In this document: piece after piece, positions 11,161 to 32,155 of the stretch | Layout: every line of letters begins with the position of its first letter | Position numbering within the stretch: position 1 is the stretch's first letter | Origin: an uncultured Neomegalonema sp. | Lineage (GTDB): Bacteria > Pseudomonadota > Alphaproteobacteria > Rhodobacterales > Rhodobacteraceae | Direction: 5' to 3' | Assembly (NCBI GenBank): GCA_937957975.1 | Contig: CALFFK010000063.1 | Location: forward strand, 1 to 35,041 | Length of the DNA: 35,041 nucleotides | Notes under the pieces: model-generated | Told to the model about the DNA's origin: nothing | Database searches by the model: none | The model's input: the letters and a program-made list of their open reading frames with translations, nothing else | Position numbers and translations under genes: made by a program

Positions 11161-11643
11161 ATGAACACTCGCATTACGCTGACCGCCGTCGCACTTGTTA
11201 TAATGACACTCTCTGGCTGTAGTTCGCTGGGGGGTAGCACCGCTCCTGCAGCAAAAGCCCCGGCAGCCCCTGCTGCTGCCGCAGCACAAGCCCCTATCAT
11301 TCTTCCTCCTCCTCCTCCTCCCGCCCCCCCTCTCACCGCAGAGGCTCCAGCAGCCCCTGCTGGCGAGTATATCTCTATTGGCAATCTGGGCAGTGATGGC
11401 GCAACCGTAGCAACGACAACCGAAGCTGCCACGGTCGAAGCAACCACGGTCGAAGCAACCACGGTTGAAACAACCACAGCCGCCGCAGATGACGTGACCG
11501 CCGACGATGCCGCCATGAACAGCTGCTTCGCTGCGGGTGGTCAGGTTGTGAACTGGGTCGGTGATTCCAGCGGCACCACACTGGCATGTCGTCGGGAAGA
11601 TGGTCTTGAATACCGTCTGGCAGACGCACAATACTACCAGTAA
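11161..11643 (+). CDS. Alanine/proline/threonine-rich lipoprotein of unknown function
   Basis: A 160-residue protein with an N-terminal lipoprotein signal; the lipobox L-S-G-C places the lipidated cysteine at residue 20. The mature part begins with an Ala/Pro-rich linker including a run of six prolines. Next comes a Thr/Val/Glu-rich segment from a 15-base DNA tandem repeat (VEATT units). A C-terminal section of about 45 residues has two cysteines (NSCFAAGG and LACRRED) and ends ADAQYYQ. The cysteines could form a periplasmic disulphide. The low-complexity linker may span the periplasm or peptidoglycan. GGAAGAGGAAG just before the ATG serves as Shine-Dalgarno. I do not recognise the family of the C-terminal part. 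It faces the MBL-fold gene convergently. Confidence 0.85.
   Translation: MNTRITLTAVALVIMTLSGCSSLGGSTAPAAKAPAAPAAAAAQAPIILPPPPPPAPPLTAEAPAAPAGEYISIGNLGSDGATVATTTEAATVEATTVEATTVETTTAAADDVTADDAAMNSCFAAGGQVVNWVGDSSGTTLACRREDGLEYRLADAQYYQ
11422..11481 (+). repeat. 15-base tandem repeat, four units, within the lipoprotein gene
   Basis: Four units of GAAGCAACCACGGTC-type sequence follow one another at 11422, 11437, 11452 and 11467. The second and third differ at one base; the outer units have further substitutions. Being a multiple of three, copy changes keep the reading frame and only alter the length of the Thr-rich linker. Confidence 0.9.
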
Positions 11644-27552: not shown

Positions 27553-28107
27553 TCAGTGTTCTTTCATGGCGAGTTCGAGGCGTTCGAGCTTCGACTTGAG
27601 CGAAGCATCGACCATCTTGCTGCCGACTTTAACGATAAGACCCCCCAGCAGGGAAGGATCGACACTTGCGTCGATCTTAACATCCTTGCCGAAGGAGGAT
27701 TTCAGGTTTTGTGCGAGTGCAGTGCGCTGCATCTCGCTCAGGGGTTTGGCGGAAATTACTTCCGCCGTTTCCTCGCCGCGCTCCTCGGCCAGAAGGGCAG
27801 AAAAACCCTCCATCGCTTCGGGCAACAGGGCAAGGCGTCCCCTCTGTGCCATCAAACCGACGAATTTACCCGTCAGGTCAGAAGCACCCATTTTCTTTGT
27901 TACTGCCGCTATGATCGATCCCTGCACCTCACGCGAGTAGGCAGGGCTGGAGATCACTCCGGCAAGTTCTGGATTGTCCTTCAGGACGCCACCGAGGGCG
28001 TCAAACTCCGAAGCGACGGCGTCGAGCACACCGGACGACTTCGCAAGATCGAAAATCGCGGAGGCGTAGCGACCGGAAGCACCGGAAAGCGAAGCGGCTG
28101 ACGACAA
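27553..28107 (-). CDS. atpH: ATP synthase F1 subunit delta (TTG start)
   Basis: The peripheral-stalk subunit that ties F1 to the b subunits, 184 residues from the preferred start. It shows SGRYASAIFDLAKSSGVLD near the N-terminus, typical of delta/OSCP, and at the C-terminus the conserved VISAKPLSEMQRTAL, then DASVDPSLLGGLIVKVGSKM followed by VDASLKSKLERL. No in-frame ATG or GTG exists near the N-terminus. TTG at 28107 has GAGG five bases upstream and puts GRYA 11 residues from the start, as expected for the family. Another TTG at 28122 lacks a Shine-Dalgarno. It is the first gene of the operon. Confidence 0.94.
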   Translation of the reverse strand: MSSAASLSGASGRYASAIFDLAKSSGVLDAVASEFDALGGVLKDNPELAGVISSPAYSREVQGSIIAAVTKKMGASDLTGKFVGLMAQRGRLALLPEAMEGFSALLAEERGEETAEVISAKPLSEMQRTALAQNLKSSFGKDVKIDASVDPSLLGGLIVKVGSKMVDASLKSKLERLELAMKEH

Positions 28108-28277
28108 GGCGACCTCATTCAAAGGTTTCGGGGTGATGCACGAACGAATGTCCTGCGAACGCGCGGACGAGTAGCACAGGCCTTACGGACATGACAATAC
28201 GCCGCCGTCGAAATCTTGCAGTCTTTCGGTCGCAGCCAAAAAAGTAAGACCAAAAATCCCCAATGTGCACGCTTCTT

Positions 28278-28299
28278 GCTCAGGGCATGCTCAGGGCAG
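28278..28299 (+). repeat. Tandem 11-base repeat upstream of the sorting-tail protein gene
   Basis: GCTCAGGGCAT (28278-28288) is followed directly by GCTCAGGGCAG (28289-28299). The period of about one helical turn, 42 bases before the start codon at 28341, would suit a regulator binding one DNA face. That role is inferred. Confidence 0.5.
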
Positions 28300-28340
28300 A
28301 TCACGACGATCCGGTACACAAGATCATGGAGCAAGACACT

Positions 28341-28934
28341 ATGAACATCCTTAAACTCTCTGCCGCAGCCTTTGGTGTTCTCGTCACCGTTCTCGCCACT
28401 ACCCCCGATGCCAACGCCACCGTGATCGACCCACGCGAGCGCACATCATTCAACGAGGGTCGCACGTTGCTTGACGCCTCAGGTGGAGCCGCTTCCACGA
28501 CGTTCTCCACTGGTGTTGACGCCACCCGCGTCATTGACGGGGCGGTACAGCTGGATATCAGAGACATCAGGTATTGGTGGAAAACGCGTCCGGGACAGAC
28601 AGATTACGACGCCAGAAATGAAGCGGCCAACGCGTGGACCTTCACGCTGTCCCACGCCGGAACGACTGCAAATCTCGGCGGGCTTGCCGGTGCTACGAAT
28701 GACCATTGGGTCCGAACTTCGGCATTTGATGGCGTAACCGCAGGCGGTGACTGGGTTTTGACTGCTACATCCAACTATTTCCACAACGCCAAAAAGCAGA
28801 TCGAATTCAACCTCACTGGCTTCTTCTATACCATTGCCGGAAATCCGGGTGGTGGCCAGGTTCCTGCCCCTGCAACGCTTTTCCTGATCCTTGCAGGTCT
28901 TGCGGGCATGGCCGGAGCACGTCGCAAGGTTTGA
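28341..28934 (+). CDS. Secreted protein with VPxPA/PEP-CTERM-like sorting tail
   Basis: A 197-residue exported protein. The signal peptide MNILKLSAAAFGVLVTVLAT ends near ANA-TVI (residue 26). The C-terminus is a sorting signal of the PEP-CTERM kind: VPAPA at 174-178, a hydrophobic helix, then the basic end ARRKV. Such tails are normally cut by an exosortase; none is in this window. The body has a Trp-rich domain with W80-x-T-x-P, W99, W123, W138, TSNYFH at 143-148 and IE-x2-LTG at 154-160. A hand alignment shows the same pattern in the next gene. I recognise no named family for this domain. ATG 28341 has GGAG about ten bases upstream; ATGs at 28263 and 28326 would place charged residues before the signal peptide. 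Confidence 0.82.
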   Translation: MNILKLSAAAFGVLVTVLATTPDANATVIDPRERTSFNEGRTLLDASGGAASTTFSTGVDATRVIDGAVQLDIRDIRYWWKTRPGQTDYDARNEAANAWTFTLSHAGTTANLGGLAGATNDHWVRTSAFDGVTAGGDWVLTATSNYFHNAKKQIEFNLTGFFYTIAGNPGGGQVPAPATLFLILAGLAGMAGARRKV

Positions 28935-28993
28935 TTCCCACACTCCCGACGCGACGGGATGGCCTTACCTAGCCGTCCCAACCTCCGGGATTC

Positions 28994-29030
28994 GGCGTCC
29001 TTTTCCGTCACACTCCCGGAAAGGGACGCC
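28994..29030. terminator. Hairpin between the two paralogues, possible terminator
   Basis: GGCGTCCTTTTCCG (28994-29007) pairs with CGGAAAGGGACGCC (29017-29030) over 14 base pairs with one wobble and a nine-base loop. No T-run follows on the plus strand, so it may slow or stop transcription only weakly, or stabilise the 3' end of the upstream mRNA. Confidence 0.5.
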
Positions 29031-29086
29031 GTCGCATATAACGCGCGCGCCAGTGCCGCCCACCCTACGCGTCAAAGTATAATGCC

Positions 29087-29941
29087 ATGAACCAGATCAG
29101 GAACCAATTGATCATGCCAGGGATTCTCATCCTGACCGTAGCAATGTCTATGGCCGCCAGCGCCACAGTCATCACCAAGCAAGCGGAGGCCAGAACAGAG
29201 CAGGCCGCTCCCGCCCGCACAGCCGCCCCGCGCCCCGTTACCCGCCGCAGTTTCACGAGCATAGTCGAATCAAATATTCTGGATCGTCCTGCACAACCGA
29301 GTCCCTGGGTCTCCCGCGTCAAAGAATCGCCAACCCGAAAAAAGCGTGTCGAGCGAAAACAACCAAATTCCTGGACAGCCCGTGTCAAAAAACCTTCCGC
29401 ACGGGAAAACCGTGCCGAACGCGAACAACTGACTGCGCAGAAAAAGCGTAATGAGGCGAACCACGAAACGATCATCGCTGAAATAAAAGCCAGCACCATC
29501 CTGAATCCTGATACACAGGATCTGGCCGCAGACTTTTGGATCACCGAACCACAAGGCACGGAAATCGCGGAAGACTGGACCCTCGTGGTCCCCTCAAACC
29601 CGTTTGGTAATACAGACACCGAATGGCATGATTCTGTCAGCGCACCATGGTCGGATTTTCCCGCCTTTCAGAGTCTCGCAAAAAGCAGTCAGTGGTTGTT
29701 ATTCACAACATCCAACTACTTTCACGAAGGGCAGGTCGGGATCGAGCGCATCCTCACAGGGCGTACCCTTGAACCTCTGGGATCTGGGCAATCTTCTGCA
29801 ACAAGCAGAGTCAGCAAAAAAAATACCCCACGCCCACGGGGAAACGGCAGCAGGATTCCAGCCTATATCGCCCTTTTTGTCATCTTCGCCATTATCGTGG
29901 GCCTGGCCATAAGTGGCAAAGGTATGAAACGCTCATTTTAG
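29087..29941 (+). CDS. Membrane-anchored paralogue of the preceding sorting-tail protein
   Basis: A 284-residue protein with an N-terminal signal sequence (hydrophobic about residues 8-24, then SATVI, as in the neighbour's mature start). Residues 35-125 are a very basic, charged, low-complexity region with two RVK-containing repeats (SPWVSRVKE and SWTARVKKP). Residues 150-225 repeat the neighbour's domain: W151-x-T-x-P, W164, W188, W203, TSNYFH at 208-213 and IE-x2-LTG at 219-225. The spacing from W164 onward is identical. The C-terminus is a membrane helix (257-276) and the basic tail GKGMKRSF, without the VPAPA motif. TATAAT lies three bases before the ATG and no Shine-Dalgarno is seen, so translation may be leaderless or begin at ATG 29114. 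Function unknown. Confidence 0.75.
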   Translation: MNQIRNQLIMPGILILTVAMSMAASATVITKQAEARTEQAAPARTAAPRPVTRRSFTSIVESNILDRPAQPSPWVSRVKESPTRKKRVERKQPNSWTARVKKPSARENRAEREQLTAQKKRNEANHETIIAEIKASTILNPDTQDLAADFWITEPQGTEIAEDWTLVVPSNPFGNTDTEWHDSVSAPWSDFPAFQSLAKSSQWLLFTTSNYFHEGQVGIERILTGRTLEPLGSGQSSATSRVSKKNTPRPRGNGSRIPAYIALFVIFAIIVGLAISGKGMKRSF

Positions 29942-29947
29942 GGGATG

Positions 29948-32155
29948 TCATAGGAACGAGTAGGGATCGACGTCGAAAATGACGCGAATCCCCGATGGCA
30001 CTTTTACCGTGTCACGCCATGCACGAACAACGCGCGGATGATCGATTCCCCGCGCCATACGCAGCAACATTCGCACCCGATGCTTGCCGCGCAGCATGGC
30101 ATAGGGCGCAGGCGCAGGGCCAAAGACGTCTACCCCCGCTTCGGTCAGCAGGTTTCCGGCGGCGGCCAGGGCGCGCGATACCTGCCACACCTTTTCTTCG
30201 TCTTCGCCCTGCACGATCACAGCGATCAATCGCGTGTAGGGCGGCATCCGGGCCTGTTGGCGTTCTTCTGAAAGCCGGGTGCGGAACCGATGCGCGTCAC
30301 CATCGAGGATGGCCCGCAGCACCGGATGATCGGGCATGGTCGTCTGAAGCATCGCCCGGCCCGGCTTTTCTGCCCTGCCCGCCCTGCCCGCAACCTGATT
30401 GAGTAGCTGGAACGTGCGTTCAGCCGCGCGCAGATCACCCCCCGCAAGGCCCAGATCAGCATCGACCACACCCACGAGTGTCAGAAGGGGAAAATTGTGC
30501 CCTTTCGCAACGATCTGAGTGCCAACAATAATATCCGCGCCACCCCCGGTAATGGATTTGATCTGATCCTGAAGCGCCTTTGGGTCAGGCGTCTGGTCAC
30601 TCGACAGAATTTCCACGCGGGCAAGCGGAAACCGCTCACGCGCTTCCTCGGCGATTCGCTCGACACCGGGGCCACAAGCGGCAAGGCTGTCTTCGGTGCC
30701 ACATTCGGGACAGGCGCGGGGAAACGGCTCGCGCCAACCGCATTGATGGCACAAAAGCGCCCCTCGCCCCCGATGTTCCACCAGCCAGGCCGAACATTGA
30801 TTACAGCCTGCGCGCCATCCACATTTGCGGCACAGCGTCAGCGGGGCATAGCCACGCCGGTTCAGGAAAAAGAGCGCCTGTTCCCCGCGCGCATTCACGT
30901 CGCGGGTTGCCCCGACCAGTTCAGGCGACAGCCACATACCCTTTTCGGGTGGATCGGCGCGCAGGTCGATGGCGCTGAGAAACGGCAGCACAGCCGAGCC
31001 ATGCCGTTCACGCAGGGTCAGGTGACGATATTTGCCCATCCCGGCATTGATCCAGCTTTCCAGCGAGGGCGTGGCCGATGCAAGAACCGCAGTGCAGCCC
31101 TCCTGTGCGGCCCGCAACACAGCGATGTCCCGCGCCTGATAAGGTACAATATCATCCTGCTTGTAGCTCTGGTCATGTTCCTCATCCACCACGATCAGGG
31201 CCAGATCGGCAAACGGCAGGAACAGCGCTGACCGCGCCCCCGCAACCACCTGCGCCTGCCCCCGCGCCACGGCTTTCCAGGCGCGGCGGCGGGCAGCGGA
31301 GGTCACACCCGAATGCCACTCGACCGGGGGCGCCCCGAATCGCTCACGCACCCGGCGGATAAAATCAGCGGTCAGGGCAATTTCCGGCAGCAGGATCAGG
31401 GCTTGCCGACCCGCAGCAACACTGGCCGCGACGGCCTCCAGATACGTCTCGGTCTTACCCGATCCCGTCACGCCATCAAGCAACAGCGTTTCGAATTTCT
31501 GCGCGGCGATGGATTCGGTGATCGCTTCGCTGGCTTCGGATTGCTCGGCATTGAGCTTGGCCACGCGAAAATCGGGATCAAGTTTTGGCGGTGGCCGGTC
31601 CTGTGGCGCTTGGTGTACCTCCAGCGCGCCCGCCTCGATCAATCCCTTGACGACGCCGCCAGACACCCCCGCTTCCCGCGCCAGATCAGCGGCGGCAAGG
31701 CCCGGTGAGGCCATTACGGCATCAACAACGCGGCGGCGGGCATCGGTCATCACTTGCGGCTCACCAGAGCCACGCACCAGCACAGCACGCGGTTTCTCAG
31801 GCTCCAGCAGCCCCGGCGCACGGGTTGCCTGTCGCAGCATCATCCCCGGTGGCGTCAACGTATAGCGCGCCGCCCGGTCGATCAGCCCCCGCATCGCCTC
31901 CGGCATAGGCGGTAAATCAAGACGCCGCAGCACAGGTTTGAGCTTGCTCGTTTCGCCAGTCCCCTGCCCCCAAACGACCCCTACTGTCTCACGCCCCGAA
32001 ACAGTCACGGCGACATAATCTCCCGGTGTCAACGGCTCCTCACTCAGATAATCGAGTGGACCGGGCAGCGGCAGGGGAACCATGACAGCGTAAGGCCTGG
32101 CATCCGGGTCAGTGAAAAGATCAGAGGACAAGGGGGTTTCCGCAATGGCTGACAA
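29948..32155 (-). CDS. priA: Primosomal protein N' (replication restart helicase PriA)
   Basis: A 735-residue 3'-5' DNA helicase that recognises stalled forks and reloads the replisome. The N-terminal DNA-binding domain contains PLDYLSEEPLTPGDYVAV. The helicase core follows with Walker A DGVTGSGKTETY, DEEH in IVVDEEHDQSYKQDD, ASATPS, and the late QVAGRAGRAEKPG. A zinc-binding insert carries eight cysteines in CRKCGWRAGCNQCSAW and LCHQCGWREPFPRACPECG. The C-terminus is intact. No in-frame ATG exists at the expected N-terminus: TTG 32155 is taken as the start, a TTG nine residues later is an alternative, and neither has a good Shine-Dalgarno. The stop is seven bases from the convergent paralogue's stop. 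Confidence 0.94.
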   Translation of the reverse strand: MSAIAETPLSSDLFTDPDARPYAVMVPLPLPGPLDYLSEEPLTPGDYVAVTVSGRETVGVVWGQGTGETSKLKPVLRRLDLPPMPEAMRGLIDRAARYTLTPPGMMLRQATRAPGLLEPEKPRAVLVRGSGEPQVMTDARRRVVDAVMASPGLAAADLAREAGVSGGVVKGLIEAGALEVHQAPQDRPPPKLDPDFRVAKLNAEQSEASEAITESIAAQKFETLLLDGVTGSGKTETYLEAVAASVAAGRQALILLPEIALTADFIRRVRERFGAPPVEWHSGVTSAARRRAWKAVARGQAQVVAGARSALFLPFADLALIVVDEEHDQSYKQDDIVPYQARDIAVLRAAQEGCTAVLASATPSLESWINAGMGKYRHLTLRERHGSAVLPFLSAIDLRADPPEKGMWLSPELVGATRDVNARGEQALFFLNRRGYAPLTLCRKCGWRAGCNQCSAWLVEHRGRGALLCHQCGWREPFPRACPECGTEDSLAACGPGVERIAEEARERFPLARVEILSSDQTPDPKALQDQIKSITGGGADIIVGTQIVAKGHNFPLLTLVGVVDADLGLAGGDLRAAERTFQLLNQVAGRAGRAEKPGRAMLQTTMPDHPVLRAILDGDAHRFRTRLSEERQQARMPPYTRLIAVIVQGEDEEKVWQVSRALAAAGNLLTEAGVDVFGPAPAPYAMLRGKHRVRMLLRMARGIDHPRVVRAWRDTVKVPSGIRVIFDVDPYSFL

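What the first reader, a model, noticed from the sequence alone, without database searches (positions are those of the whole stretch)
28341..29941. Tandem exported paralogues share an unnamed Trp/TSNYFH domain but carry different C-terminal anchors
Hand alignment of the two products gives a gapless block of 62 residues: W99/W164, W123/W188, AF at 128-129/193-194, W138/W203, TSNYFH at 143-148/208-213, IE at 154-155/219-220 and LTG at 158-160/223-225 all fall at identical spacing. A W-x-T-x-P motif precedes it in both, and both mature proteins start near ATVI. The first ends in a VPAPA-type sorting tail; the second has a membrane helix and basic tail without VPAPA, plus a 90-residue basic insertion. 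This looks like duplication followed by divergence of the anchoring mode. I recognise no family for the domain.
Basis: partly seen in the sequence, partly recalled or inferred. Interest (0 to 1): 0.72.

Follow-up and report, generated by a model that had tools for sequence, protein, structure and literature searches.

The report
Surface protein and its decaying copy
Two neighbouring genes appear to be a bacterial surface protein of the PEP-CTERM (exosortase-sorted) kind and a fast-diverging duplicate that has lost its sorting signal and probably half of its fold; this is a new small family of a known kind rather than a new system.

Summary
In detail: the two products are related (gapless 62-residue block, 18/62 identical, 0 of 5000 shuffles as good; group profiles match at E 6e-7), and only the first has a PEP-CTERM tail. 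The interpretation changes. (1) The block is not a domain but the C-terminal part of a ~135-residue predicted beta sandwich in the first protein; structure search and weak profile matches place it nearest proprotein-convertase P-domains (Kex2, furin). (2) The first protein is a cargo candidate of XrtA, the one exosortase found, whose polysaccharide locus is present; relatives were found only in the genus. (3) In relatives the gene sits in the same priA-atpH slot, usually alone; the second gene occurs otherwise only in the sister genome. (4) The second protein changes about 12 times faster than PriA, gives no confident fold, and its tail looks like a PEP-CTERM with an eroded motif. The 7 members aligning along the whole domain have VPxPA/G tails; the 3 with partial domains lack them. 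Decay is likelier than a switch of anchoring. Matrix function is inferred; W-x-T-x-P is not conserved.

The parts
28341..28934 (+). P0001, 197 aa, exported PEP-CTERM protein with a P-domain-like predicted beta sandwich
28341..28421 (+). signal peptide of P0001 (ends ANA, then TVI; read by eye)
   Evidence: sequence; region conserved in orthologues
28437..28838 (+). predicted beta sandwich of P0001, residues 33-166
   Evidence: AlphaFold2 model pTM 0.60; Foldseek Kex2/furin first
28635..28820 (+).
28857..28928 (+). PEP-CTERM tail (VPAPA, helix, RRK)
   Evidence: PF07589 over cut-off
28994..29030 (+). strong hairpin between the genes, one site in the genome; possible terminator of P0001, though without a T run
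   Evidence: fold z -4.85 for 28935-29086; single site; unrelated hairpins after the gene in 2 of 4 relatives folded
29087..29941 (+). P0002, 284 aa, diverged paralogue without sorting motif
29294..29425 (+). two tandem 22-aa units (residues 70-91 and 92-113) in the basic half of P0002
   Evidence: 0 of 2000 shuffles; 44 of 66 bases identical; the sister copy lacks much of this stretch
29576..29761 (+). P0002 residues 164-225, the only part of its body clearly homologous to P0001's domain
29861..29914 (+). C-terminal helix of P0002, an eroded PEP-CTERM-like tail (IPAYI where P0001 has VPAPA)
   Evidence: aligned with P0001's tail; helix 259-276 in the low-confidence model
27553..28122 (-). atpH, divergent neighbour (name from position and sequence, recalled)
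   Evidence: found in 14 of 14 genus genomes
29948..32155 (-). priA, convergent neighbour (name recalled)

Best explanation
P0001 is exported by its signal peptide, its VPAPA tail is cut by the genome's exosortase XrtA, and the released beta-sandwich protein joins the extracellular polysaccharide matrix. P0002 arose by tandem duplication in the common ancestor of this genome and its sister; it lost the sorting motif and the N-terminal half of the sandwich, gained a basic repeat-bearing stretch, and is now probably a bitopic inner-membrane protein under weak constraint, on its way out or of minor use. Shown by computation: homology, sorting tail, XrtA and its polysaccharide locus, place, distribution in the genomes searched, rates. 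Inferred: cleavage, location, matrix role, decay.
For: One exosortase was found in the 93.6%-complete assembly, XrtA at 312.8 bits (cut-off 208), near XrtA-system polysaccharide deacetylase, FemAB protein and glycosyltransferase, each over its cut-off, and an amidotransferase at 734 bits, under its 816.9 cut-off; XrtA in 14 of 14 genus genomes. P0001-type gene in the priA-atpH slot of G150, G152, G153 too. P0001 G000-G150 dN/dS 0.13. P0002-type gene only in G000 and its sister G160; 40% identical, dN 0.546, dS 1.21, ratio 0.45; priA dN 0.046 for the same pair. AlphaFold2 of P0002 mean pLDDT 40, pTM 0.24. The 7 members that align along the whole domain keep a VPxPA/G tail; P0002, G160's copy and G159's slot gene align only in part and have no such tail. 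G160's P0001-type gene is itself cut short to 82 codons.
Against: The P0002 frame has stayed open in two genomes with dN/dS under 1, so it is probably still translated and not neutral. dS is near saturation, so ratios are rough. The low P0002 model confidence may reflect a five-row alignment. The whole-domain/partial-domain sorting rests on sequence alignment; only P0001 was modelled with some confidence. No experiment shows that XrtA cuts P0001 or that P0002 stays in the membrane.
Confidence: 0.6

Rival explanations
1. Functional split of anchoring: P0001 is released to the matrix, P0002 is a purposely retained inner-membrane partner that binds or guides P0001 or polysaccharide through its basic stretch.
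For: P0002 frame kept open in two genomes; signal-peptide region, helix and tail region retained.
Against: P0002-type genes were found in 2 of 14 genomes, in one of them beside a broken P0001-type gene; fast evolution; partial domain; loss of the tail motif is also seen in G159 without a pair.
Confidence: 0.2
2. The domain is not P-domain-like but another sandwich, such as DM13 or a generic jelly roll.
For: A DM13 lipoprotein of the same genome gave the best single match to the family profile (score 38.2, E 1.1e-5; E 0.0019); Foldseek also lists Cry11Aa (rank 7, 6.2e-5), FlhE (7.4e-5), GOLD domains and viral coat proteins. Profile matches to P-domains of the genus are weak: E 3.1e-4, 0.0013, 0.0033, 0.0099, 0.11 when two more divergent P-domains are included.
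Against: The DM13 match shrinks to 29.6 without its leader, and a four-sequence DM13 profile scores much like its shuffles (9, 24 and 52 of 200 as good), while a nine-sequence P-domain profile beats 200 of 200 shuffles for three family sets, narrowly for subfamily B (27.0 against 26.6). The first six Foldseek hits are Kex2 and furin; Pfam P_proprotein touches two of seven trimmed members at the same place, E 0.059 and 0.32, below its cut-off.
Confidence: 0.2
3. The two genes are unrelated and the block is convergence or chance.
For: Only 42 columns align in profile comparison; the basic half has no counterpart.
Against: 0 of 5000 shuffles; similar signal-peptide and tail regions, same orientation and slot; TSNY at 143-146 is shared by P0001, P0002 and G160's copy against TSDY or TADY in the three other intact P0001-type genes.
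Confidence: 0.03

Closest known systems
PEP-CTERM / exosortase (XrtA) cargo proteins (TIGR02595, PF07589; Haft et al. 2006, PMC1569441, passages read)
   Same: Signal peptide, C-terminal motif-helix-basic tail over cut-off, XrtA and its polysaccharide locus in the genome.
   Different: Body matches no named PEP-CTERM family over its cut-off; the paralogue has lost the motif.
Proprotein convertase P-domain (PF01483; Kex2, furin, Aeromonas sobria protease)
   Same: Best structural matches and an in-register T-x-AF-x-G...G-x-W motif.
   Different: Stands alone without a protease; sequence scores are below Pfam's cut-off; only 21-35 columns align in the nine-sequence profile test.
XDP1 exosortase-dependent surface protein (NF041927)
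   Same: Weak NCBIfam match, E 1.4e-5.
   Different: 25.2 bits against a 125-bit cut-off; no match at E 10 when the tail is removed.
PepA PEP-CTERM protein of floc-forming Aquincola (PMC9850573, passages read)
   Same: PEP-CTERM cargo; its overexpression restored flocs of an rpoN1 mutant with less soluble and more bound polysaccharide.
   Different: Not compared directly; the NCBIfam model named floc_PepA (NF033554) gives 8.8 bits against 80 with P0001.

Membership tests
PEP-CTERM cargo (P0001) | C-terminal PEP-CTERM domain over the curated cut-off | tested here: met
   22.8 bits vs 20.7 and vs 16
PEP-CTERM cargo (P0001) | Exosortase in the same genome | tested here: met
   one XrtA
PEP-CTERM cargo (P0001) | Cleavage by the exosortase | not testable with these tools
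   needs protein chemistry
PEP-CTERM cargo (P0002) | C-terminal PEP-CTERM domain | tested here: not met
   no PEP-CTERM match at the E 10 setting
Proprotein convertase P-domain | PF01483 score over the gathering cut-off | tested here: not met
   no hit for P0001; best relative 13.9 bits vs 21; none in subfamily B
Proprotein convertase P-domain | P-domain jelly-roll fold | tested here: inconclusive
   top Foldseek hits Kex2 and furin, E about 1e-5, TM 0.41-0.48 of query; model mean pLDDT 68; target range not reported
XDP1 (NF041927) | score over 125 bits | tested here: not met
   25.2 bits, from the tail
DM13 (PF10517) | similarity to DM13 profile | tested here: not met
   no Pfam DM13 hit in the family members scanned; shuffles do nearly as well

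The most novel reading that the evidence does not exclude
P0002 is a working inner-membrane-retained partner made from an exosortase substrate by losing its sorting motif, for instance a periplasmic guide or competitor for P0001: an exosortase cargo turned into a dedicated accessory factor.
Probability: 0.1. Interest if true: 0.55.

Novelty: new member of a known kind. Interest (0 to 1): 0.3.

Why it matters
It gives a small case in which an exosortase substrate in a fixed chromosomal slot can be followed through duplication, erosion and loss among close relatives, and it suggests a link between a stand-alone P-domain-like sandwich and XrtA sorting. No paper in the held library contains both 'P-domain' and 'exosortase', though absence from one open-licence library proves little.

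Tried and rejected
Named families: only the tail of P0001 matches over a cut-off; PHROGs nothing. XDP1: tail only. DM13: first looked better than the P-domain, set aside after profile and shuffle controls. W-x-T-x-P: not conserved. Wider relatives: in 149 genomes of the family (own included) only the own match and a tail match in G054; in 390 genomes of the order only the own match is convincing, three E 0.003-0.007 matches were not followed; none in plasmids. First scan of genome contigs found none; the second gave 6 loci, of which one (L103, Blautia) is a chance motif in what looks by eye like a phosphoesterase and was dropped. PDB by sequence: four hits, E 0.73 or worse, taken as chance. 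Sigma-54 pattern with 3 mismatches: 361 against 339 expected, 200 rows seen, so no claim. DNA-level repeats of 14 bases or more in 28100-29990: none; the P0002 repeat is seen at protein level. In one search three loci were first read on the wrong strand; corrected. In the nine-sequence P-domain profile the two more divergent P-domains of the genus (L106, L107), which score poorly, and 6 of 13 plasmid hits were not used.

Full report
The observation. The two genes lie between atpH (27553-28122, minus) and priA (29948-32155, minus), both on the plus strand. The gapless block has 18 of 62 identities; mature P0002 shuffled 5000 times never gives an ungapped 62-mer as good (69 against a best of 48). 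BLASTP gives E 2e-8. With profiles of four P0001-type and two P0002-type sequences the match is E 6.4e-7, but only over 42 columns, 120-161 of P0001. The W-x-T-x-P motif is not kept in P0001's own orthologues.

The first protein. P0001 passes Pfam's and NCBIfam's PEP-CTERM cut-offs. One exosortase was found in the genome (93.6% complete), XrtA, near XrtA-system polysaccharide deacetylase, FemAB protein, glycosyltransferase and, below its cut-off, amidotransferase. Four of six PEP-CTERM matches in the genome, P0001's included, are over the cut-off. XrtA is present in 14 of 14 genomes of the genus.

The domain. A seven-row AlphaFold2 model of P0001 has mean pLDDT 68, pTM 0.60, with a beta sandwich at residues 33-166 (means of ten-residue blocks 62-92). 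Foldseek against PDB reports 57 matches at E 1e-3 or better (50 rows printed); the first six are Kex2 (E 9.5e-6) and furin, with more furin entries below, Aeromonas sobria protease at rank 34, and, in between, other sandwiches such as Cry11Aa (rank 7), FlhE (rank 9) and GOLD domains. That the match is to the P-domain of these enzymes is inferred, since their catalytic domain is alpha/beta (recalled) and the target range is not printed. Pfam's P_proprotein touches two of seven trimmed members at the same place, below the cut-off. Profile comparison with P-domains of the genus is weak, E 3.1e-4 to 0.0099 with two of them and 0.11 with four. Against a profile of nine P-domains, the whole family and its two subfamilies score 25.3, 23.5 and 27.0, with 0 of 200 column shuffles as good in each case (best shuffles 19.9, 19.8 and 26.6), over 21-35 columns. 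Against that, in a pool of 454 ORFs five scored 26 or more with the family profile, one being a DM13 lipoprotein and two matching by signal peptide, so single P-domain sequences (24.7 and less with the same profile) are not decisive. The DM13 lead did not survive a profile test. The P-domain reading is therefore likely, not proven.

Relatives. Genus-wide searches (14 genomes) find two subfamilies. Subfamily A is the P0001 type: intact in G000, G150, G152 and G153, in these four between priA and atpH; in G160 the gene in that slot is cut short to 82 codons beside a P0002-type gene, and in G159 the slot holds a 284-residue relative without VPxPA. Subfamily B lies elsewhere in G150, G153 and G159 and matches A over 153 columns, E 5.3e-11 (two of its three members). 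The slot could be read in 10 of 14 genomes (priA and atpH on one stretch, and the window); 4 of these 10 (G149, G154, G155, G156) show no family member there; in 3 priA is not on the fetched stretch and in 1 the contig ends at atpH. Neomegalonema (Meganema) perideroedes is a filamentous bacterium of activated sludge (PMC4511698, passages read). Outside the genus no convincing relative was found.

History. A PriA plus AtpH tree (midpoint root; some genomes with AtpH only) joins G000 and G160, then G150 (support 0.975 and 0.983). P0002-type genes were found only in G000 and G160, and P0001, P0002 and G160's copy share TSNY where the three other intact P0001-type genes have TSDY or TADY. The simplest history is a duplication after the split from G150. 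P0001 is constrained (dN/dS 0.13 with G150); P0002 is less so (0.45 with G160; dN 0.546 against 0.046 for priA). Its basic half holds a 22-residue tandem repeat that the sister copy lacks in large part. Its tail reads IPAYI where P0001 has VPAPA, and YLAYI in the sister.

Pattern. The 7 family members that align along the whole domain have a VPxPA/G tail (one, of subfamily B in G150, reads VPAPG and ends at a contig edge); the 3 with a partial domain (P0002, G160's copy, G159's slot gene) have none. Loss of the fold and loss of the sorting motif seem to go together, which speaks for decay rather than for a chosen new anchor. Ten sequences that share ancestry are few, so this is a pattern, not a test.

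How it most likely works. From Haft et al. 2006 (PMC1569441, passages read): the motif sits at the periplasm-membrane interface and EpsH/exosortase is proposed to cleave it, releasing the protein towards the extracellular polysaccharide. From PMC9850573 (passages read): overexpressing a PEP-CTERM protein restored flocs, with less soluble and more bound polysaccharide. From PMC3158780 (passages read): P-domains and similar jelly rolls are proposed to serve stability and binding. By analogy P0001 would be a matrix or binding protein. P0002, if made, would stay in the inner membrane. None of this was tested.

Transcription. A 15-pair hairpin (28994-29030) stands between the genes, at one site in the genome; unrelated hairpins follow the gene in G150 and G153, the latter with a T run, but not clearly in the other two relatives folded. 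P0002 may be a separate unit; the simple scan shows no promoter-like or terminator-like site on the plus strand of 28100-30000.

Noticed in passing
L054 5343-6083 and 6166-7089 (own genome, contig C118): A second tandem pair of PEP-CTERM proteins, both with VPAPG tails and alike at both ends (by eye). An adjacent, nearly identical pair also occurs in G054 (L061), and two alike copies about 7 kb apart in G154 (L062).
   Followed up: partly
L053 3136-3678 (own genome, contig C67): A DM13-domain lipoprotein (35.5 bits vs 25) whose stretch WFISLASDFFHDG resembles the P0001 block; single-sequence match only.
   Followed up: yes
L086 3826-4638 (G155): In a more distant genome the atpH side of the slot holds a different VPLPA-CTERM protein (27.0 bits vs 25.35) with a long SSGGT repeat.
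   Followed up: partly
L084, between 3830 and 5556 (G149): The priA-atpH slot carries part of a long reading frame resembling a pilus-assembly (Tad-type) protein, by eye; my family scan of it failed on frame.
   Followed up: no
window 28994-29030: Strong hairpin without T run between the two genes, one site in the genome.
   Followed up: partly
window 11161-11643: A short lipoprotein-like reading frame (by eye) with ATVEATTVEATT-like repeats.
   Followed up: no
L104, L105 (G157, G160): Large proteins with P-domains over the cut-off, subtilase-like at the start and RTX-like at the end by eye; P-domains over the cut-off in 4 of 14 genus genomes, not in the own one.
   Followed up: partly
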